Of a stretch of 64,000 nucleotides of DNA, positions 5,047 to 59,040 are shown piece after piece. Below the pieces are notes generated by a model that was given only the letters and a program-made list of their open reading frames with translations, was not told the DNA's origin and ran no database searches. Source of the stretch: Eubacteriales bacterium (GTDB lineage: Bacteria; Bacillota; Clostridia; Lachnospirales; Lachnospiraceae); contig JAUNUY010000002.1 of assembly GCA_030537935.1 (NCBI GenBank), positions 1 through 64,000 on the forward strand, read 5' to 3'. Made by a program: the position numbers and the translations under genes. The number at the start of each line of letters is the position of its first letter. Positions within the stretch are counted from its first letter, which is position 1.

Positions 5047-5730
5047 TTATTTCAAAAAATCCATCATATCCGAAGGAACACCTGATGTCTTCAAATACCA
5101 TTTTCCGTCTTTTTGGATCAACTCCATATCGTCGATCTTTTCCTCTTCATTCCCCATAAAGGACATCTTCATTTTGACGGATACCGTCGCGGTGCCGTCA
5201 CCGTGATCCTCCGAATCGAGAATCTCAAACTCCATGTTTTTAAGGAGACCCTTGGCCAGATCCATGCCCAGCTTCATTTCGGGTGTCTCCATCTCCGCTA
5301 AGACTTTCTCTCTTTCCTCCGGTGATATGTCCGTACAGTCCATCACCTTTTTGATATCGGCATCTTTCAACGCCGTTAAAGCCGCTTTTACCGTTGCTTC
5401 CGGTGTCGTTCCGGCCTTGCCGCCACCCTTCAAAAAAACAATCAAAAGGACGACAACGGCGATAATCGCTACCGCGCCGACTGACAGACCGATAATCAAA
5501 CCCTTTTTCGACTTCTTCGGTGGTCCGCCCGCATTGGGATGACCCTGCTGTCCGTATCCCTGCGGCGGCATGCCCTGAGGCGGCATACCTTGCGGTGCCA
5601 TGCCTTGTTGTGGCATGCCCTGCGGTGCCATACCCTGAGATGCCTGATTGGGCGGCATACCCTGCGGCGGTACTTGATTCGGCGGCATGCCTTGTGGCGG
5701 ATATCCGCCGTTCATGTTGTTATTGTTCAT
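5047..5730 (-). CDS. Pro/Gln/Gly-rich membrane protein with DUF4878-like domain (paralogue A)
   Basis: A 227-residue protein in three parts. The N-terminus (residues 9-72) is a low-complexity tail of PPQGM/APQGM units. A basic PPKKSKKG stop precedes one membrane helix (about 78-100). The C-terminal domain (about 108-227) has a helical start (ATVKAALTALKDADIKKVMD) and a beta-rich end finishing QKDGKWYLKTSG, resembling DUF4878/lumazine-binding-like lipoprotein domains. The tail is probably cytoplasmic and the folded domain outside. The start is the ATG after AGGGGGTTACAG; in-frame sequence upstream covers the promoter. A second copy with the same plan lies immediately upstream. The function is unknown. 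Confidence 0.8.
   Translation of the reverse strand: MNNNNMNGGYPPQGMPPNQVPPQGMPPNQASQGMAPQGMPQQGMAPQGMPPQGMPPQGYGQQGHPNAGGPPKKSKKGLIIGLSVGAVAIIAVVVLLIVFLKGGGKAGTTPEATVKAALTALKDADIKKVMDCTDISPEEREKVLAEMETPEMKLGMDLAKGLLKNMEFEILDSEDHGDGTATVSVKMKMSFMGNEEEKIDDMELIQKDGKWYLKTSGVPSDMMDFLK
5551..5700 (-). repeat. Degenerate 15-base coding repeats (PPQGM units)
   Basis: This stretch encodes about ten imperfect five-residue units of the PPQGM/APQGM/PPNQ type in the N-terminal tail of paralogue A. Such 15-base repeats can expand or contract by slippage without shifting the frame. Confidence 0.8.
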
Positions 5731-5767
5731 CTGTAACCCCCTGTTTCTATAGTATTTTGACACTTTT

Positions 5768-5795
5768 ATTATAGCAAACATCATCACTTTGTCAA
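5768..5795 (-). promoter_or_regulatory. Promoter of paralogue A
   Basis: On the minus strand a perfect TTGACA (5790-5795) and a perfect TATAAT (5768-5773) are 16 bases apart. The sequence around the -35 box (an A-run then ATTGACAAA) is almost identical to that of the paralogue's promoter. Confidence 0.8.
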
Positions 5796-5926
5796 TTTTT
5801 TTATGAAAATTTCGTGTATATTCAGAGTACTTCGTCACTTTCGAATATTATGACCGCATTTGAGCATCATATCCTATCAGATTCGGTTGGTAATTATAAA
5901 AACAAAGCCGACTTTTTGCAATGCCG

Positions 5927-6562
5927 CTATTTAAACTCATTCGTCATTTCGGTAAATGCTCCTTGCGTTTTCATCAGCCATTTACCGTCTTTTTGAACCA
6001 TCTCCACATCGGTGGTTCTTTTTTCCTCCTTACCAAATAGAGACATTTTCATTTCAACGGACACCACCGCCGTACCGTCGCCATGATTCTTGACATCGAG
6101 AATTTCATACTCTACATCCTTCAACATGACCTTTACCATTTCCAGTCCGGCCTTCACGTCCTCCTTCTCATACTCTTTCCGTGCTTTCTCCTTATCCGCC
6201 GCCGACATATCCATGTAATCAAGCATTTTGTCTAAATCGCCATTCTTTAACGCCTTAAAAAAGTCGTGGACCGTGTCCTCCGGCTTTACCTCGACAACAG
6301 GTGTCTCTGTCGGTAAAGTCTTGGATTCACTTTCAGCATCACCTCTGAAAAAGATAACCAAAAGGACGATGGCGGCAATAATCACCACTACACCGATTGA
6401 TAGACCGATTACCAATCCTTTTTTCGACTTCTTCGGCGGCATGCCGCCCGCGGGATAATACGGCTGACCGTACCCCGGCGGTGTTTGATTCGGCGTTCCC
6501 TGTGGTGTCTGATTCGAGGACGCACCTTGTGGCGTATCGTCGCCATTTACTTTGTTGTTCAT
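5927..6562 (-). CDS. Pro/Gln/Gly-rich membrane protein with DUF4878-like domain (paralogue B)
   Basis: A 211-residue paralogue of the next gene downstream with the same layout: a shorter Gln/Thr/Pro-rich N-terminal tail (residues 8-40), MPPKKSKKG, one membrane helix (about 49-72), then an acidic linker and a DUF4878-like domain (about 90-211). Shared landmarks with paralogue A are EILD.(E/K)(N/D)HGDGTA.VSV.MKMS and QKDGKW..KT. The start is the ATG after AGAGGTTTTAAG. It has its own promoter, so the two copies can be expressed independently. Probably a tandem duplication followed by divergence of the tail. The function is unknown. Confidence 0.8.
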   Translation of the reverse strand: MNNKVNGDDTPQGASSNQTPQGTPNQTPPGYGQPYYPAGGMPPKKSKKGLVIGLSIGVVVIIAAIVLLVIFFRGDAESESKTLPTETPVVEVKPEDTVHDFFKALKNGDLDKMLDYMDMSAADKEKARKEYEKEDVKAGLEMVKVMLKDVEYEILDVKNHGDGTAVVSVEMKMSLFGKEEKRTTDVEMVQKDGKWLMKTQGAFTEMTNEFK

Positions 6563-6598: not shown

Positions 6599-6628
6599 AT
6601 TATAATAAAATTTGACTTGTTTTGTCAA
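6599..6628 (-). promoter_or_regulatory. Promoter of paralogue B
   Basis: On the minus strand perfect TTGACA (6623-6628) and TATAAT (6599-6604) boxes are 18 bases apart. It shares the A-run plus ATTGACAAA block with the promoter of paralogue A, supporting duplication of gene plus promoter. Confidence 0.75.
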
Positions 6629-9365: not shown

Positions 9366-10325
9366 TTATTCATTCGGCTTTTTCGGATCAAAGCTGTCCA
9401 CATTTTCTTTCGTCAACACCTTGTTCTTCAAAACAACATCTTTTTCCACCTTTTCGCCTTTAAGGTGCTTCACGGCCGTGTTCATGATACCACGACCCAA
9501 GACAAACGGCGGCTCCGCAATGGTTGCCTCCACCTTGCCGTTTTTGATGGCATCAATCGTCTCATCCAATGCATCGCAGCCGATCATCACGATTTTATCC
9601 TTACGCCCTGCTGCATTCACCGCTTCCAGTGCCCCCAAAAGCATTTCATCGTTTGCACAATAGATACCGTCGATTTCCGGATTACCCTGCAGAATATTCT
9701 CCATTACCGACAGACCTTCCGTCCGGTTGAAATTGGCCGTTTGACGGGCCACAATTTCGATATCCGGATTTTTATCCATGATTTCATTAAAGCCTTTGGA
9801 ACGTTCCTGTGCCACATTTGATCCCAGGATACCCTGTAATTCCACGACCTTTCCCTTGCCACCCAAGCTTTTGGCAAGAAACTCCCCGGCCAGATTCCCG
9901 GATTTGACCGCATCATAACCGACATGGGCAATCACTTCACCCCCGTTGGCACGGCGATCCATGGTAAACACAGGAATATTCGCCGCATTACAAGCCTCGA
10001 CGGAAGAAATAATGGCGTCCGAATCACAGGGGTCAATCAAGATGGCCGCCGGCTTCTTCGTAATCAAGTTTTCAATATCCTTCTGCTGCGTGGTCGGATT
10101 ATCCTGTGCATCCGTAACAATAACCTCATATCCCTGTTCCGCCGCCTCTGCCTTACAGCCCTCCACGACCGAAACGAAAAACGGATTGGATAAGGTATTC
10201 ATGGACAGGGCAATTACTTTTTCCCCGCCCTTCTCACCGGTATCTGCGGATTCCCCGCCTTTGTTTGCGCCGCAACCGCTAAAAATCAAGGTCGCCGCCA
10301 TGAGACATGCCAGAAGTTTTTTCAT
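9366..10325 (-). CDS. rbsB: Ribose ABC transporter substrate-binding lipoprotein
   Basis: A 319-residue periplasmic-binding-protein-type lipoprotein. The signal sequence ends in the lipobox LIFSGC (lipidated Cys about residue 18). The mature part starts with IALSMNTLSNPFFVSVVEGC and contains the DAQDNPTTQQKDIENLI and CANDEMLLGALEAV segments typical of RbsB. It delivers D-ribose (or a related pentose) to RbsC/RbsA. The start is the ATG after AAAGGAG; an in-frame start 7 codons earlier has no RBS. It is the last gene of the operon, where transporters are often boosted separately. Confidence 0.93.
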   Translation of the reverse strand: MKKLLACLMAATLIFSGCGANKGGESADTGEKGGEKVIALSMNTLSNPFFVSVVEGCKAEAAEQGYEVIVTDAQDNPTTQQKDIENLITKKPAAILIDPCDSDAIISSVEACNAANIPVFTMDRRANGGEVIAHVGYDAVKSGNLAGEFLAKSLGGKGKVVELQGILGSNVAQERSKGFNEIMDKNPDIEIVARQTANFNRTEGLSVMENILQGNPEIDGIYCANDEMLLGALEAVNAAGRKDKIVMIGCDALDETIDAIKNGKVEATIAEPPFVLGRGIMNTAVKHLKGEKVEKDVVLKNKVLTKENVDSFDPKKPNE

Positions 10326-10346
10326 GATATTCTCCTTTCGTATCAT

Positions 10347-11306
10347 CTATGCCTTCTCCGACACTTTCTTTAACTTACGGTCCAGTACGACCGCTAAAAT
10401 GATAACAATACCTTTCACAATCTTTATCGCCAGTGCATTGACATTCAACAGCACTAAAATATTATCGATAATCCCCATAATCAATGCACCGATAACGGTC
10501 GGCAGTACGAAACCGCTGCCGCCGCTCATGGATGTACCGCCCAATACAACGGCCGCTATGGCATCCATTTCAATGCCTTCCCCGCAGGTCGCCTGCGCCG
10601 AACCCAAACGGGCCACCAGAACGATACCGGCTAGAGCAGCGCAAAGGCCGCTGAGAATGTACGCCTTCCACTCCGTCCGAACGACGTTGATACCGGCCAA
10701 CCAGGCCGCATCACGATTACCGCCGAAAGCGTATACTTTCCGACCGAACGTGGTATGTTTGATGACGATATGCAACACGACATACAACACAATCAGTAGG
10801 ATAATCGGTATCGGAATGCCGGCAATACTGTCTTTGCCGATTGCCTTGAATACGTCACTCTTTACCGGAATCGGCGAGCCCTTCGTATACACGAGAATGA
10901 TGCCCCGCAACATCGTCATGGTGCCCAGTGTAATGATGAACGGCGGCAACTTCAATAAACTGATGAAAGCACCGTTCACCATACCGCATATCAGACCGGT
11001 CGCCAAGCCGGTCAATATCGCCAACACGACACTGCCCGTACTCGCCAGTACGCCCGCTGAAAGAACACCGGAAAGACCGACGATGGAGCCGACCGACAGG
11101 TCAATGCCGCCCGTCAGAATCACGACCGTCATACCGCCCGCCACAATGCCCGCCACGGCCACCTGCTTGATAACGTTAAAGAAGTTGGACAGACTCAAAA
11201 AGTCGGATGACAAGGCCGTTCCTGCAATACAAATGATGACAAACAGGATAACCGACCGGTAGGTGCTCAACTTCCGTGCTACGCCGGTTTTATGCTTCAT
11301 TTTCAT
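10347..11306 (-). CDS. rbsC: Ribose ABC transporter permease
   Basis: A 319-residue polytopic membrane protein of the RbsC/XylH family, with about eight to ten helices. GGIDLSVGSIVGLSGV and the EAA-like segment GRKVYAFGGNRDAAWLAGI are diagnostic, as is GGTSMSGGSGFVLPTVIGA near the C-terminus. It forms the pentose channel with RbsA. The ATG lies 5 bases after GGAGG inside the 3' end of rbsA, a 17-base overlap implying coupling. Confidence 0.95.
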   Translation of the reverse strand: MKMKHKTGVARKLSTYRSVILFVIICIAGTALSSDFLSLSNFFNVIKQVAVAGIVAGGMTVVILTGGIDLSVGSIVGLSGVLSAGVLASTGSVVLAILTGLATGLICGMVNGAFISLLKLPPFIITLGTMTMLRGIILVYTKGSPIPVKSDVFKAIGKDSIAGIPIPIILLIVLYVVLHIVIKHTTFGRKVYAFGGNRDAAWLAGINVVRTEWKAYILSGLCAALAGIVLVARLGSAQATCGEGIEMDAIAAVVLGGTSMSGGSGFVLPTVIGALIMGIIDNILVLLNVNALAIKIVKGIVIILAVVLDRKLKKVSEKA

Positions 11307-12792
11307 TCACTCCTCCCGATGCATACGATAAAATCGTCTGCTGATTGATTTTATCTGCCGCCAACTCCGTGACGATTCTTCCCTTTCGCATGACCAGTAC
11401 CCGATCGCTGACACCCACAATTTCCGCCAAATCACTGGAAACCAGGATGACACTGCGCCCCGCCACCGTCATGTCATTGATGAGCGCATAGATTTCCGCC
11501 TTTGCACCGACATCCACGCCGCGGGTAGGCTCCGCCAGAATACAGATGTCCGGTGCGCCCATCTCCAGCCGCGAAAAAACCACCTTCTGCTGATTGCCGC
11601 CGCTCAGATGCCTTGTCTCCTGCAGGGGGGAACGGGCCTTAATGCGAAACTTTTTCATGAAGCGGTCAATGGCCGCCGCTTCCTTCTCGGCACGGATAAA
11701 ACCGCCACCGGAAATTTGCTTCAAGGATGAGAGCGAAATATTTTCTTTGATGCTCCTTCCGGTCAACAACCCTTCCCGCTTCCGGTCATCAGAGACAAAA
11801 CCGATGCCGCACCGTAAGGCCTTGGCCGGCGTGTCCGGATGAATCTCTTCTCCATTCTTGTATATCGTTCCACCACGTGCCGGATATGCTCCGTAAAGGG
11901 TCTTTGCCAACTCGACCGTTCCCGAACCGAAAAGGCCGGTAATCCCCAGGATTTCACCCTCCTGTAATGTAAATGAGATGTCTTCGATCTTCTCGCCGCT
12001 GATATTGCGGACCTCGTAAACCACTTGACCGCCCGGAAACGATCTCTCCGGATATAAGTCCCCCACATCCCGGCCGATCATCATGTGGATGAGCTCTTCG
12101 TAGTTTGTCTCCGCCACCCGCTTCGTACCGATGAAATCTCCGTTTCGAAGTACGGTAATCCGGTCCGCCACCTGAAAGATTTCATCCATCCGGTGAGAAA
12201 TATAGAGAATCGTCACCCCCTGCTCCTTCAAATCACGGATAATATCAAAGAGGGTTTCCGTCTCCTTTTCAGTCAGCGCCGCCGTCGGCTCATCCATAAT
12301 CAGGATGCGCGTTCCGGGCCGTAGGCATTTTGCAATCTCCACCATCTGTGCCTGCGCGACACTCAAACTCTTCATGGGCAACCGGGGATCGATATCCGCT
12401 GACACCCGCTTCAGTAAATTCTCCGCCTCGCACCGCATCGCCGACCTGCTGACAAAGTACTTTCCGCGTGCCGGATAACGCCCCAGAGAAATATTTTCCA
12501 TGACGCTCAGTTCCGGCACGAAATTCAGTTCCTGATGAATCATGTACACGCCCTTGGCTTTGGCATCATTGGTAGAATGGAACTTGCAAGTCGATCCGTC
12601 CACGATGATTTCACCCGTCGTTTGACGCAACGCACCGGCAATGATTTTCATCATCGTCGATTTGCCGGCACCGTTTTCACCGCAAATGGCATGTACCTCG
12701 CCCCGCTCAAAGGCCAAGTTGATATCCCGTAATACTTCGACACCGGAAAAAGATTTTGCTATCTTTTTCAGGCTGAGTACCTTGTTTTCCAT
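11290..12792 (-). CDS. rbsA: Ribose ABC transporter ATP-binding protein (two ATPase domains)
   Basis: A 500-residue tandem ABC ATPase. The first domain has Walker A GENGAGKST, a variant signature LSVAQAQMVEIAK and Walker B LIMDEPTAALTEKE. The second has the degenerate Walker A of this family (GLFGSGTVELAK), signature LSGGNQQKV and Walker B LAEPTRGVDVGAK. This asymmetry is normal for RbsA/MglA types. It energises pentose import with RbsC and RbsB. The ATG follows AGGTG; the stop overlaps rbsC. Confidence 0.95.
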   Translation of the reverse strand: MENKVLSLKKIAKSFSGVEVLRDINLAFERGEVHAICGENGAGKSTMMKIIAGALRQTTGEIIVDGSTCKFHSTNDAKAKGVYMIHQELNFVPELSVMENISLGRYPARGKYFVSRSAMRCEAENLLKRVSADIDPRLPMKSLSVAQAQMVEIAKCLRPGTRILIMDEPTAALTEKETETLFDIIRDLKEQGVTILYISHRMDEIFQVADRITVLRNGDFIGTKRVAETNYEELIHMMIGRDVGDLYPERSFPGGQVVYEVRNISGEKIEDISFTLQEGEILGITGLFGSGTVELAKTLYGAYPARGGTIYKNGEEIHPDTPAKALRCGIGFVSDDRKREGLLTGRSIKENISLSSLKQISGGGFIRAEKEAAAIDRFMKKFRIKARSPLQETRHLSGGNQQKVVFSRLEMGAPDICILAEPTRGVDVGAKAEIYALINDMTVAGRSVILVSSDLAEIVGVSDRVLVMRKGRIVTELAADKINQQTILSYASGGVNENEA

Positions 12793-12799
12793 AAATCAC

Positions 12800-13204
12800 C
12801 TAGTAGGCACATCCCATTCGAAGAATCACGTTCGTATAACCCGTAAATTCTCCGGTTAAAATGATGGCCTTTGCCCCTTTCATCTGCTCCTTCAACGTGG
12901 CATGGGGAACATAGGAAACGGGTATGTCACCGAGCAGGGCCAATGTCTCCCGATGGATGGCTGCCGTTGCTTCGCCGTTTGTCTTTGCTTCATCCGCAAA
13001 GGTTGCCGCTTCCACCGCCAGAACCGATTGAACCGCTGAAAAAACCTCGAGAAAACGCGGTGAATTTTCTATCCAGCCCAAGTCCACGCGCTCAACGCCT
13101 TCGGGCACGGGTAAGCCCGCATCCCCAATGACCAGTAAATCCATATGCCGCAACTCGCCCAGTATCCGCAACAGTTGCGGATGAAAAATGCCTTTCTTAA
13201 TCAC
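12800..13204 (-). CDS. rbsD: D-ribose pyranase
   Basis: A 134-residue RbsD/FucU family protein that interconverts the pyranose and furanose forms of ribose so that ribokinase receives its substrate. MIKKGIFHPQLLRILGELRH with the catalytic-type histidine near residue 20, GDAGLPVP and the C-terminal GEFTGYTNVILRMG fit RbsD. The start is GTG, 6 bases after GGAGGGG, overlapping the 3' end of rbsK by 8 bases. Confidence 0.95.
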   Translation of the reverse strand: MIKKGIFHPQLLRILGELRHMDLLVIGDAGLPVPEGVERVDLGWIENSPRFLEVFSAVQSVLAVEAATFADEAKTNGEATAAIHRETLALLGDIPVSYVPHATLKEQMKGAKAIILTGEFTGYTNVILRMGCAY

Positions 13205-14126
13205 TTGACCCCTCCTTTAACAATGCGTCAATAGCCGCCCGATCCGCCATCGAATTGGTCGTTCCGAGTTTTTGAACGGACAGTGCGGCCGCCGCATTGG
13301 CAAAGCGGACCGCCGCTTTCAAATTACATCCTTCCGCCAATGCCGTAACCAATGCACCGTTAAATGCATCCCCTGCTCCGGTCGTATCCAATGCCTTCAC
13401 GGGCACGGGCGGAATAATTTCATCCAACGTATCATCCAGGACATAAGCCCCCTTGTCACCCCAGGTGATAATGACGTGTGGTACCCCCATTGCCCTTATG
13501 GCTGCAGCCGCCACGCGAGCATTTTCCGCCGTATCGACGGTCGTGCCGGTTAATCCGCAGGCCTCAATTTCATTCGGCGTAATGATATCCACGTATGCCA
13601 AGATGTCCCGGTCAAATGGCGAATAAGGCGCCGGATTCAATACCACGGTGGCACCGCGTTCCTTAGCCGCCCGTATTACCTGATAGACCGCCGGCAAATT
13701 AATCTCCAACTGCGTCAACAATATCGTATTTTCATCGATATGTGCTATAACCTGATTCACCTCGTCTTCCGTAAAGGTTTCCGCTGCACCGGGCACGACC
13801 ATGATGGCATTTTGCGAAGAATGCTCATCCACCAAAATCAACGCCGTACCGGTCGCCCGGTCGTTCGCATAAAAGAGGTAATCCTTGGCCAGTCCCAGCT
13901 CATCCATCGTATATTCCGCCACTTGTCCGAATATGTCCCTGGCAATTTTGGTTGACATCAGTACATCGCCGCCCGCTTTACGGGCCGCAACCCCCTGGTT
14001 GAATCCCTTCCCGCCGGGACCGCTTTGAAAATACGTACCCCGGACGGTCTCTCCGGGGGCGGGCAAATGGTCCGCACGAGACATGAGGTCTACCACGAAA
14101 CTGCCCATTACCACGATTTTTTTCAT
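13197..14126 (-). CDS. rbsK: Ribokinase
   Basis: A 309-residue PfkB-family kinase that makes ribose-5-phosphate from ribose and ATP. The substrate-binding GGKGFNQGVAARKAGG (about residues 38-53) and the anion-hole/catalytic DTTGAGDAFNGALVTAL (about 247-263) with the base Asp are intact. The length is standard. The ATG follows AGGAGAATGAA. It sits between deoC and rbsD in the operon, and its 3' end carries the RBS of rbsD. Confidence 0.96.
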   Translation of the reverse strand: MKKIVVMGSFVVDLMSRADHLPAPGETVRGTYFQSGPGGKGFNQGVAARKAGGDVLMSTKIARDIFGQVAEYTMDELGLAKDYLFYANDRATGTALILVDEHSSQNAIMVVPGAAETFTEDEVNQVIAHIDENTILLTQLEINLPAVYQVIRAAKERGATVVLNPAPYSPFDRDILAYVDIITPNEIEACGLTGTTVDTAENARVAAAAIRAMGVPHVIITWGDKGAYVLDDTLDEIIPPVPVKALDTTGAGDAFNGALVTALAEGCNLKAAVRFANAAAALSVQKLGTTNSMADRAAIDALLKEGSSD

Positions 14127-16911: not shown

Positions 16912-16985
16912 AAAACATCCCCCGCAACCGGCAACATCCCCCGCAACCGGCAACAGGCGCCGACCGCAGGGGATGTTTTTATTGT
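16912..16985 (+). terminator. Terminator with internal tandem repeat
   Basis: AAAACATCCCC at the left pairs with GGGGATGTTTT at the right, followed by a T-rich stretch, so the unit can end the aldo/keto reductase transcript. The loop is unusually long because it includes a duplicated 19-base segment. Confidence 0.75.
16915..16952 (+). repeat. Perfect 19-base tandem duplication
   Basis: Positions 16915-16933 and 16934-16952 are identical 19-mers in direct tandem. The left arm of the terminator stem is therefore present twice, giving two alternative pairings with the single right arm. Confidence 0.95.
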
Positions 16986-55845: not shown

Positions 55846-58800
55846 TTAGCGAACCACACCGTTCGCATCGGCAAAATACCATGTCCCTTTCACACATATC
55901 CATTGCTTCTGGGCTATCGCACCGCTCTCCGTCGCATAGTACCATTCGCCGTTCACGTATACCCATTGATTTTGGGCTATCGCACCGCTCTTGACTGCAT
56001 AATACCATACACCGTTCACGTACACCCATTGATTTAACGCAATGCGTCCGCTGTTCGTCGCATAATACCATACGCCGTTCACGTACACCCATTGATTCTG
56101 GGCTATCGCACCGCTCTTTCCGGCATAGTACCAATCACCGTCTACATATACCCATTGGCTCTGTGCAATAACACCGGTACTCTTTGCATAGTACCATAAA
56201 CCGTCTACCAGCACCCATTGATTTTGAGCCAGTACACCGGTATTCATGGCATAATACCATGCACCGTCATCATACACCCATTGATTTTGGGCCATTACGC
56301 CGCTGTTGCCGACCCAGCGCATGGCACCGTCTGAAATGACCATGGTATTGCGATCCATCTGTCCGCTGCCCGCTACGTGATACCACTGACCGTCGGTTTC
56401 AATCCAGGCATTCGTCTTTACGCCACCCTGACCGTCGGCATAGTACCACTCGTTATCTGCGGTAAACCAGCCTTCCGCCGGTATCTCGTCTTTTTTATTT
56501 TCCTTGTCCGCGATAGCTTTTTCCAGCGCATCGATAGTCTTGCCATGCTTTAATGCATCTTCCGCCTTGTCCACGGTCACCTGATCCGTGTCACAGTCAT
56601 CAAAGACTTGCTTCGCATGCTCGATGGCCGCCGTCAATACGGCGCCCGGATTTTCCACGGTTTCCGCATCCGCGATGGCTGCACGCAAATCAGTTTTATC
56701 ATAGATTAAGGTTGCATGCTTGAAGTCACACTTCAATTCCGCTTCCGGTGTCCATGTATTAAACTTGATTCTGTCGTACAGATTCAAGTCCTCAATTGGA
56801 TTTACTTCGCCCGGTTTTGGCTTTACACTTTGCATCGCATCCATGGCATCGACAACCATTTGCATGGCTATCGTGTAACCCCATGCTTTTTCCGATGCTG
56901 TCGCCATATCAAAGTTATCATCAAACAGACGGAAGGTGTGCGGGAATTCTCGAACCATGTGCTCGAATGATGCACCCTTCACCGTATAATTCACCGGATA
57001 ATGCTCAGGATTAGCCTTTCTTGCTATTAAGCTGATGTCACGGAAATACTCCCCAGCTTGTGCAAAAACTAGCGACTCTTCCCAAGCATCTGTTTCTCCA
57101 TCTGCCGGCATCGACGGATCACCTTCTTTATATTTTATACCCCAAAGATGACCCATAAAGCCCAACACGGAAATACTTTCTGTACGGAGATCCAAACTAC
57201 CTTTGCCGTCTTCTTCATAGAAGTAAGATGTGGACGCTAAACCGCCGGCGCCCATGGATAGATATTTATCATCTTTCCATTGATGCAAACGAACGGGCAC
57301 CTCATATTTTTTCATCTTATAAGCCGGCTTAGCCTCACCTTCCCGGAAATGCGGTTCTACCATCATCGCTTCATGAACAAAATCACCGACATTCGCCTCT
57401 ACATACTCACCCTGGTCAAGACGCCACGCGTTTGTAAAGAAACCAAGCAAAGGACCCTGCGTTTCTTTAAGCCATTGTTCAACCTCTTTTTGTGACATCT
57501 CTGGTTTGTTATGTTTAGCTGACCACTCAGCGAGAAAATTATCATTTGCTCCCACCCATGCCGGCTTGAGTTTCGACTTATCTCTCAAGTTATCATAAAT
57601 AAATTGGATATCATCCATCGTTTTACGGAATTGTTCACGCATAGGGGCATCCATACTATACCAATATACCGCATACAGTGTTCTATCCTTAGCAACTGTG
57701 AACGGGAATTCTTCCGCTTTGTTTGAATTAGCACGTTTTGCCCAATGTGCAAATGTATTATTCGGCTTTGCCGCCGGCTCCTCCGGCGCTTCAAACGGAT
57801 CCCCAACAAAAGCCTGTACCTGTTTTATTTCCGGTCCGTCCGAATCTTTCAAGGTGATTGTCACTTCGTCCGGTGTGGCATCCGTCACCTTTTTCAGTGC
57901 GGCGTCCACCGCCGGCTGGATGGCATTCGGATTGGCCAATACCTGCTCCGCCTCATCCAAGGCCGCTACCAACTCGGCCGACTTATTGATGACCTTCTTT
58001 GCTTTGTCAACCGCCGCCTGCAGGTCATCCGTCGATGCCGGAATCACCTTCCAGCCCGCCTTCAACTCCAAGGGACCCGTCACCGGTTGCGTGAAATCAT
58101 AGAGCACGTCATTCGCATACCAGCCCGTAAACTCATGGTACTCCTTTGTCGGTGCCGTCGGCTCCGCAACCGTTTCTCCCTCTTTCACGGTTACACTCGT
58201 TGTCGCCTCACCATTATCCGGATTGAATTTCACCACGTACTTGGCCCATGTTTTCTTTGCATTGGCCACATCAAACTGCAGTCTGGCAAACTGTGCACCA
58301 TCATTCGGATCACTCGGATCATAGGGATCGCCGCCGCTCAAAGCCTTCATCGCATCCACAACAACAGCAATCCGAATAAACGTATTGTACGACTCGGTCG
58401 AATTGAGGGCCGCATCCATATCAAAGTTGTCATAGGTCATGCGCAGCAGATGCGGGAACTCCCGAATTTCACCAAACTTTGCCTCGTCCCGATTCGGATA
58501 GTTGGCCGGCAATGCATCAATCTCTTCCGCCGTCGCTTCTCTGGTGTTCAGGGAGAAGTCCGTCCGATAATGGACGACATCTGCGACAGTTGTCAGATCC
58601 GACGTTTTTGCCGGCTGTGCCGTCGGGTCCTGCGGATTATAACTCATCTGCAGCAAATGACCGTACATGCCCAGGAATTTAAGACCGATAAGGCGAACCT
58701 CGAAGTACGTCTTATCCGGTGTCACGACAATTTGACCCGTCTGGGACATCGCACCGTTACCCATTGAGGCACGGTCCTCGTAGTTGTTCCATAAACGAAC

Positions 58801-59040
58801 CGGCACCTCGTATACGGCCGTCGCATCCGCCGGAACCTCCTCAACGTCACCGTCACGGAATGTATATACCAGGGTGTCCGCCGTCGGCATATACTCCCCT
58901 GCCGGTGTTTGCATTTCACGTGGCGTGTATCCTCCCGACGGGTCTTGCGCCGCTGCCGGAACAACCCCTGCAAATGTGGAGAAAACCATCAACCATGCCG
59001 TAATAACGGCTGTGAAACGTTTCCTTGCTTTCTGTTTCAT
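55846..59040 (-). CDS. Surface protein with duplicated NEAT-like module and cell-wall-binding repeats
   Basis: A 1064-residue exported protein. A signal peptide (about 1-31, cleavage near AAA-QD) is followed by module 1 (77-268), an InlB B-repeat/Flg_new-like domain (268-331), a FIVAR-like helical segment (338-388), a second beta-repeat-like domain (393-460), a linker, module 2 (579-772) and another helical segment (780-850). The C-terminus (857-1064) has ten units of 21 residues of the QWVYVNGxWYYA type. The two modules share YEVPVRL, SMGxG, LGMYGHL/LGFMGHL, REFPH, DNFDM and VVDAM, and loosely resemble NEAT (heme-binding) domains. There is no LPxTG; attachment would be by the repeats. The ATG follows AGGAGG. 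Confidence 0.85.
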   Translation of the reverse strand: MKQKARKRFTAVITAWLMVFSTFAGVVPAAAQDPSGGYTPREMQTPAGEYMPTADTLVYTFRDGDVEEVPADATAVYEVPVRLWNNYEDRASMGNGAMSQTGQIVVTPDKTYFEVRLIGLKFLGMYGHLLQMSYNPQDPTAQPAKTSDLTTVADVVHYRTDFSLNTREATAEEIDALPANYPNRDEAKFGEIREFPHLLRMTYDNFDMDAALNSTESYNTFIRIAVVVDAMKALSGGDPYDPSDPNDGAQFARLQFDVANAKKTWAKYVVKFNPDNGEATTSVTVKEGETVAEPTAPTKEYHEFTGWYANDVLYDFTQPVTGPLELKAGWKVIPASTDDLQAAVDKAKKVINKSAELVAALDEAEQVLANPNAIQPAVDAALKKVTDATPDEVTITLKDSDGPEIKQVQAFVGDPFEAPEEPAAKPNNTFAHWAKRANSNKAEEFPFTVAKDRTLYAVYWYSMDAPMREQFRKTMDDIQFIYDNLRDKSKLKPAWVGANDNFLAEWSAKHNKPEMSQKEVEQWLKETQGPLLGFFTNAWRLDQGEYVEANVGDFVHEAMMVEPHFREGEAKPAYKMKKYEVPVRLHQWKDDKYLSMGAGGLASTSYFYEEDGKGSLDLRTESISVLGFMGHLWGIKYKEGDPSMPADGETDAWEESLVFAQAGEYFRDISLIARKANPEHYPVNYTVKGASFEHMVREFPHTFRLFDDNFDMATASEKAWGYTIAMQMVVDAMDAMQSVKPKPGEVNPIEDLNLYDRIKFNTWTPEAELKCDFKHATLIYDKTDLRAAIADAETVENPGAVLTAAIEHAKQVFDDCDTDQVTVDKAEDALKHGKTIDALEKAIADKENKKDEIPAEGWFTADNEWYYADGQGGVKTNAWIETDGQWYHVAGSGQMDRNTMVISDGAMRWVGNSGVMAQNQWVYDDGAWYYAMNTGVLAQNQWVLVDGLWYYAKSTGVIAQSQWVYVDGDWYYAGKSGAIAQNQWVYVNGVWYYATNSGRIALNQWVYVNGVWYYAVKSGAIAQNQWVYVNGEWYYATESGAIAQKQWICVKGTWYFADANGVVR
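55849..56472 (-). repeat. Ten 63-base coding repeats (cell-wall-binding units)
   Basis: The 3' end of the surface protein gene encodes nine 21-residue units and a final one of 19. The central units are most alike (QWVYVNGVWYYA.xSGxIAQN), while the first three are degenerate. Such aromatic- and glycine-rich units resemble choline/cell-wall-binding repeats (as in LytA or clostridial toxins). Unequal crossing-over could change copy number in multiples of 63 bases. Confidence 0.9.

What the first reader, a model, noticed from the sequence alone, without database searches (positions are those of the whole stretch)
5047..6562. Tandem pair of Pro/Gln/Gly-rich single-pass membrane proteins
Two adjacent genes, each with its own near-identical promoter, share a low-complexity tail, KKSKKG, one helix and a DUF4878-like domain. 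The tails differ strongly: one has about ten PPQGM-type units and the other a short QTP-rich stretch. Diverging tails on a conserved outer domain suggest two different cytoplasmic partners or length variation by slippage.
Basis: partly seen in the sequence, partly recalled or inferred. Interest (0 to 1): 0.5.

Follow-up and report, generated by a model that had tools for sequence, protein, structure and literature searches.

The report
Paired membrane proteins with disordered tails
Two neighbouring genes encode sister membrane proteins, each with a small pocket-type domain probably outside the cell and a floppy proline/glutamine/glycine-rich tail probably inside; this is a known but little-studied kind of bacterial envelope protein, here with strong-looking promoters and unequal tails.

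Summary
Confirmed: two adjacent minus-strand genes, A (5047-5730, 227 aa) and B (5927-6562, 211 aa), about 50% identical, each tail – KKSKKG – one helix – outer domain, each behind a perfect TTGACA/TATAAT promoter. The outer domain is NTF2-like: B passes Pfam cut-offs for MecA_N and, domain alone, DUF4878; the AlphaFold model of B's domain (pLDDT 87) matches the solved DUF4878 structure 3K7C at Z 10.2. An outside position is supported by lysines before the helix, lipoprotein-like and zinc-ribbon–TM relatives, and published surface detection of Rv0361. The tail is predicted disordered. Its repeats differ mostly at third codon positions, so recent slippage is unlikely in A; it is likelier in a paralogue on contig C35 (78-bp units, 97% matching). 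No close orthologue was found in 298 other genomes sampled from its family, but another genus holds a tandem pair of zinc-ribbon versions, also with a repeat tract in only one copy. Best reading: envelope sensor/scaffold proteins built like TcaA or Rv0361 but without a zinc ribbon, the tail being a cytoplasmic interaction segment. Ligand, partner and function are untested. New member of a known kind; modest interest.

The parts
5047..5730 (-). Gene A, 227-aa single-pass membrane protein (long PPQGM-type tail)
   Evidence: ORF with a Shine-Dalgarno-like GGGGG just upstream; 50% identical to gene B
5518..5730 (-). Gene A N-terminal tail, 71 residues, 90% P/Q/G/Y/N/M, no charged residue, 8 xxQG(M/Y) units
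   Evidence: 15-bp tandem array 5558-5637, 76% matches; coil only, block-mean pLDDT about 50-58, in the full-length model
5428..5517 (-). Gene A KKSKKG plus membrane helix
   Evidence: KKSKKG at residues 72-77; helix at residues 83-99 in the model, local pLDDT low
5050..5415 (-). Gene A outer domain, NTF2-like, DUF4878-like (22.1 bits, just under cut-off)
   Evidence: same order of helices and strands in the full-length model
5768..5795 (-). Gene A promoter: TTGACA-16-TATAAT with extended TG
5927..6562 (-). Gene B, 211-aa single-pass membrane protein (short QTP-rich tail)
6434..6562 (-). Gene B N-terminal tail, 43 residues, 72% P/Q/G/Y/N/M
6344..6433 (-). Gene B KKSKKG plus membrane helix
5930..6298 (-). 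Gene B outer domain, NTF2-like: above Pfam cut-offs for MecA_N (29.5 vs 22) and DUF4878 (25.5 vs 24.1)
   Evidence: AlphaFold model pLDDT 87.2, Z 10.2 to 3K7C and up to 9.5 to PBP5fm chains
6599..6628 (-). Gene B promoter: TTGACA-18-TATAAT
5788..5807 (-). 20-nt block TTCATAAAAAAATTGACAAA shared by both promoters (gene A copy)
   Evidence: 15-nt core has no third exact copy in the genome
6621..6640 (-). 20-nt block TTCATAAAAAAATTGACAAA shared by both promoters (gene B copy)
   Evidence: 15-nt core has no third exact copy in the genome

Best explanation
A and B are tandem-duplicated bitopic envelope proteins. SHOWN by sequence or model: N-terminal low-complexity tail, basic KKSKKG, one hydrophobic helix, C-terminal NTF2-like domain; each gene has its own perfect consensus promoter. 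INFERRED: tail inside, domain outside the membrane; the NTF2-like pocket binds a wall component, small ligand or envelope protein; the uncharged, disordered tail offers repeated weak contacts to cytoplasmic or membrane partners, or to other tails, so the protein clusters or couples an envelope state to the inside. The same outer domain elsewhere sits on lipoprotein-like anchors or behind a cytoplasmic zinc ribbon plus a similar linker, so here the tail stands where the zinc ribbon plus linker stand in relatives. The works-like models are TcaA (zinc ribbon inside, wall-affecting part outside) and actinobacterial Rv0361-type proteins. Unequal tails would tune the valence or partner of two otherwise similar sensors.
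For: NTF2-like domain by profile and fold: 3K7C, the solved DUF4878 structure, Z 10.2, rmsd 2.8, 98 residues; PBP5fm chains up to Z 9.5; PBP2a among the top Foldseek hits. Lysines directly before the helix. Of 14 foreign loci fetched at E<=1e-5 match in the outer domain; by eye 5 have a lipobox-like signal (L029, L030, L031, L032, L035), 2 a bare N-terminal helix (L034, L038), 4 a zinc ribbon plus linker plus helix (L033, L036, L040, L042); zinc ribbons of all 4 exceed the Pfam cut-off. Rv0361 was found on intact M. tuberculosis with peptide sera (PMC2891697, passages). PMC3924330 reaches the same extracellular ligand-binding view for DUF4878 (passages). Tail repeats differ mainly at third codon positions. 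The tail is coil in the model.
Against: No ligand, partner or phenotype evidence. Only one tryptophan is invariant in the outer domain across 14 sequences, so no shared binding site is visible. Gene neighbours (an S20-like gene, tRNA-Lys, a thioredoxin-reductase-like gene; the two gene names are recalled from the ORFs) give no pathway. The pair has no close orthologue in 298 other sampled family genomes, so it could be a dispensable lineage-specific gene. The Rv0361 sera also saw off-size bands in cytosol and culture filtrate.
Confidence: 0.55

Rival explanations
1. The tail is a passive cytoplasmic leader: its sequence drifts freely, and only helix and outer domain do work. Tail differences between A and B are neutral.
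For: Tails align only with large gaps; linkers in relatives vary widely in length and composition (0.35-0.77 P/Q/G/Y/N/M).
Against: P/Q/G/Y/N/M-rich, charge-poor composition recurs in four proteins of this genome (A, B, L003, L004), in Amycolatopsis and in several zinc-ribbon relatives; repeat units in A differ mostly at third codon positions.
Confidence: 0.3
2. Length-variable tails: repeat-unit gain and loss by slippage generate strain-to-strain variation.
For: 15-bp array in A; 78-bp units matching 97% in the C35 paralogue, ending at the contig end; tandem pair in another genus with a TPYGQ tract in one copy only.
Against: In A the units are only 76% alike as DNA and differ mostly at third positions; no array was reported in B; a 15-bp unit cannot switch the frame.
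Confidence: 0.1
3. The pair was acquired from Actinobacteria, being a transferred Rv0361-type gene that duplicated.
For: B passes the NCBIfam Rv0361_Cterm cut-off (37.9 vs 37); both organisms confirmed in the genome-contig scan were actinobacteria, best match Amycolatopsis, 44% over residues 59-137; no close family orthologue.
Against: A fails the cut-off (30.6), and without the helix B scores 22.5 and A is not listed at E<=0.01, so part of the match rests on the K-rich/helix segment; that scan used two short peptide patterns; tail-helix-domain relatives with zinc ribbons exist in the same family. No tree was built.
Confidence: 0.12

Closest known systems
Rv0361 family membrane proteins (NCBIfam NF051431; actinobacterial, e.g. 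Amycolatopsis L014)
   Same: Tail, PPKKSK junction, helix, NTF2-like domain; L014 has a Q/G/Y-rich tail and GGPPKKSKTGLWVGL
   Different: B barely passes and A fails the family cut-off; L014 carries further C-terminal sequence after the first domain
DUF4878 (PF12870) NTF2-like domain, solved as 3K7C
   Different: A stays just below the Pfam cut-off; PMC3924330 describes zinc ribbons, kinases, signal peptides and lipoboxes as partners of the domain, with no mention of low-complexity tails found
Zinc-ribbon, linker, TM, outer-domain proteins of related bacteria (L033, L036, L040, L042, L047)
   Same: Same order after the zinc ribbon; linker often Q/G/Y-rich; L047 is also a tandem pair with unequal tails
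   Different: A and B lack the zinc ribbon
TcaA (S. aureus teicoplanin-associated membrane protein)
   Same: Bitopic, zinc finger inside, most of the protein outside; affects wall teichoic acids (PMC10328498, abstract and passages seen)
   Different: TcaA has a zinc ribbon and is 454 residues (PMC10611510, one passage); no TcaA model is listed for A or B
MecA_N, the NTF2-like domain of PBP2a/PBP5fm
   Same: B passes the Pfam MecA_N cut-off; structural match to PBP5fm
   Different: No transpeptidase domain follows

Membership tests
NTF2-like superfamily | NTF2-like alpha+beta fold | tested here: met
   Model of B's domain pLDDT 87.2; 3K7C Z 10.2, PBP5fm up to 9.5, CaMKII hub up to 9.6; MecA_N cut-off passed by B
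DUF4878 (PF12870) | Domain score above Pfam gathering cut-off 24.1 | tested here: inconclusive
   Domain alone: B 25.5 (met), A 22.1 (just below); whole proteins 23.3 and 20.8
Rv0361 family membrane protein (NF051431) | Score above NCBIfam cut-off 37 | tested here: inconclusive
   B 37.9 met, A 30.6 not met; domain alone B 22.5, A not listed at E<=0.01
Rv0361 family membrane protein (NF051431) | Single-pass protein with outer domain exposed at the surface | not testable with these tools
   Sequence fits; surface exposure seen only in print for Rv0361 itself (PMC2891697)
Zinc-ribbon/TcaA-type membrane proteins | N-terminal CxxC zinc ribbon | tested here: not met
   No zinc-ribbon family listed for A or B; neither protein has a Cys motif in its N-terminal part
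PBP2a-type transpeptidases | MecA_N followed by a transpeptidase domain | tested here: not met
   Proteins end right after the NTF2-like domain

The most novel reading that the evidence does not exclude
P/Q/G/Y/M-rich cytoplasmic tails on NTF2-like envelope receptors are valence-tuned 'stickers' that cluster the receptor at the membrane, and tandem paralogues with unequal tails (A/B here, the L047 pair in another genus) recur because selection favours a long-tail/short-tail pair.
Probability: 0.1. Interest if true: 0.6.

Novelty: new member of a known kind. Interest (0 to 1): 0.27.

Why it matters
DUF4878/NTF2-like envelope proteins are widespread and functionally blank. A compact paralogue pair with matched architecture but different tails is a natural test of what such tails do. 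If the tails set clustering or partner choice, this would be a simple bacterial example of tail valence tuning a membrane receptor.

Tried and rejected
Ubiquitin and amyloid-precursor matches in the PDB sequence search come from repeated short stretches and from the helix; rejected. GltJ, ZipA, FlhF and similar NCBIfam hits follow low-complexity or K-rich composition; rejected. Single-sequence PDB search with A's domain found nothing significant. Viral contigs: 487 pattern stretches, no relative. Matches L037, L039 and L041 rest mainly on the basic/helix segment, with unrelated outer parts, and were left out of the architecture count (3 of 14 dropped); L036 matches only the helix and first part of the domain and was kept. 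Weak hits of the earlier searches, L010, L011, L012, L017, L018, L019, L021, were not counted; L019, lipoprotein-like, was used only as a row of alignment A5. Organism: no named relative was found; the breadth of the family (299 genera sampled) and gene content suggest Clostridia, possibly Lachnospiraceae, which is my inference only. Literature searches: Rv0361, DUF4878, TcaA/NTF2/zinc ribbon, tails and disorder, zinc ribbon/NTF2/low-complexity, family names; no paper on the function of such tails was listed there. PMC11237479 (one passage) and PMC12457691 (passages) were looked at; the RagB disordered region is extracellular, so it is not a close model.

Full report
Observation. The window lies on contig C37 of a 1.37-Mb, 42-contig genome, 85% complete. 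Gene A (5047-5730, minus) encodes 227 aa and gene B (5927-6562, minus) 211 aa. They are 50% identical in alignment A1. Each has a tail, KKSKKG, one hydrophobic helix and a C-terminal domain. In an in-frame comparison the helix region is 21 of 31 identical, the outer domain 55 of 125, and the alignable tail 24 of 43, the last inflated by low complexity.

Promoters. Both genes carry perfect TTGACA and TATAAT hexamers, spacer 16 with extended TG (A) and 18 (B). Perfect pairs with spacer 15-19 occur 3 times in the window against 0.02 expected and 28 times in the genome against 2 for the reversed control. A 20-nt block, TTCATAAAAAAATTGACAAA, is shared; a match that long was reached in 0 of 2000 mononucleotide shuffles. 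Its 15-nt core has only these two exact copies in the genome, plus one with a mismatch. The promoter evidently duplicated with the gene. High expression is an inference.

Tails. A's tail has 71 residues, 90% P/Q/G/Y/N/M and no charged residue; B's has 43 and 72%. By best 43-residue stretch they rank first and second among 96 open frames of at least 150 aa in the window (0.91, 0.72; next 0.58). The eight xxQG(M/Y) units of A differ at codon positions 1/2/3 by 29/14/77 pairwise changes, and 47 of 82 differing codon pairs are synonymous. This is what an old repeat kept at protein level looks like, not fresh slippage. In the full-length model of A the tail is coil with block-mean pLDDT of about 50-58.

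Outer domain. Whole-protein Pfam scores: A DUF4878 20.8 and B 23.3 (cut-off 24.1), B MecA_N 27.6 (cut-off 22). Domain alone: A DUF4878 22.1; B DUF4878 25.5 and MecA_N 29.5. The model of B's domain with 14 aligned sequences has pLDDT 87.2 and pTM 0.76. VIA-align gives YchJ Z 11.5, 3K7C (the published DUF4878 representative) Z 10.2 with 98 residues at 2.8 A, and PBP5fm chains up to 9.5. Foldseek's 13 matches with E<=0.001 are a designed NTF2 protein, PBP2a, YchJ and an NTF2-like protein. Only one tryptophan is invariant among 14 sequences, which argues against a conserved catalytic site, as PMC3924330 also states for DUF4878 (passages).

Relatives in the same genome. Two further paralogues: C34 (L003, 292 aa, QQGYPQQG tail, weak DUF4878 hit) and C35 (L004, GYGQ-rich repeats of 78 bp at 97% match reaching the contig end). 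So this genome holds at least four tail-helix-domain proteins.

Relatives elsewhere. With the helix+domain profile, 8 of 299 family genomes and 8 of 398 phylum genomes match at E<=1e-5, each count including the window's own genome; the best foreign E values are 3.4e-7 and 8.2e-9. No searched foreign genome holds a near copy of the pair. Of the 14 foreign loci, 11 match in the outer domain: 5 lipoprotein-like, 2 with a bare helix, 4 with zinc ribbon plus linker plus helix (signals judged by eye; zinc ribbons by Pfam). The other 3 match mainly in the basic/helix stretch. A search with the C34 paralogue (2 of 299 genomes match, own included) found L047, a tandem pair in another genus of the family: both have a zinc ribbon, they are 37.5% identical over their length, and only one has a TPYGQ repeat tract. 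In Actinobacteria, Amycolatopsis L014 and Williamsia L015 score above the Rv0361_Cterm cut-off (42.3 and 90.4 bits against 37), and L014 shows the same Q/G/Y-rich tail and PPKKSK junction; the N-terminal part of L015 is acidic and quite different.

Topology. Support: lysines before and few after the helix; lipoprotein-like relatives; and published detection of Rv0361 on intact M. tuberculosis with sera to two peptides, though the serum also saw off-size bands in cytosol and culture filtrate (PMC2891697, passages). One of those peptides ends in a stretch that resembles the end of this domain (my reading).

Interpretation. The best-supported model is an envelope receptor or scaffold: NTF2-like binding domain outside, disordered charge-poor tail inside. 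It is built like TcaA or Rv0361 but without a zinc ribbon. TcaA is described as a single-span protein with an intracellular zinc finger, affecting wall teichoic acids (PMC10328498, abstract and passages). Ligand, partner and phenotype are unknown.

Membership. NTF2-like: met. DUF4878: B met (domain alone), A just below. Rv0361 family: B met only with the helix segment included, A not met, so I do not file the pair as members. Zinc-ribbon/TcaA type: not met.

Novelty. The components and the general architecture are described (PMC3924330 for DUF4878 with zinc ribbons and lipoboxes, passages). New are this particular pair, its duplicated consensus promoter, and the parallel with L047. I score it as a new member of a known kind, interest 0.27.

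Noticed in passing
L047 (G604 contig 3), 210-1049 and 1174-2139 minus: Independent tandem pair of zinc-ribbon, tail, helix, outer-domain paralogues in another genus; only one has a TPYGQ repeat tract.
   Followed up: partly
L004 (own genome, contig 35), 1841-2075: Paralogue with 78-bp tandem units, 97% matching, that run off the end of the fetched sequence; a candidate for length variation.
   Followed up: partly
L026 (own genome, contig 34), 877-1695 plus: A multi-helix membrane protein with a P/Q/M-rich C-terminal tail: a different architecture with a similar tail.
   Followed up: no
window 55846-59040 minus: 1064-aa protein with choline-binding-type wall repeats at its C-terminus and a Listeria-Bacteroides repeat; probably a large surface protein.
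   Followed up: partly
window 9366-14126 minus: Ribose-type ABC transporter and ribokinase-like gene set (read from the ORFs; names from recall).
   Followed up: no
window 16914-16955: A perfect 19-bp tandem repeat, 2.2 copies.
   Followed up: no
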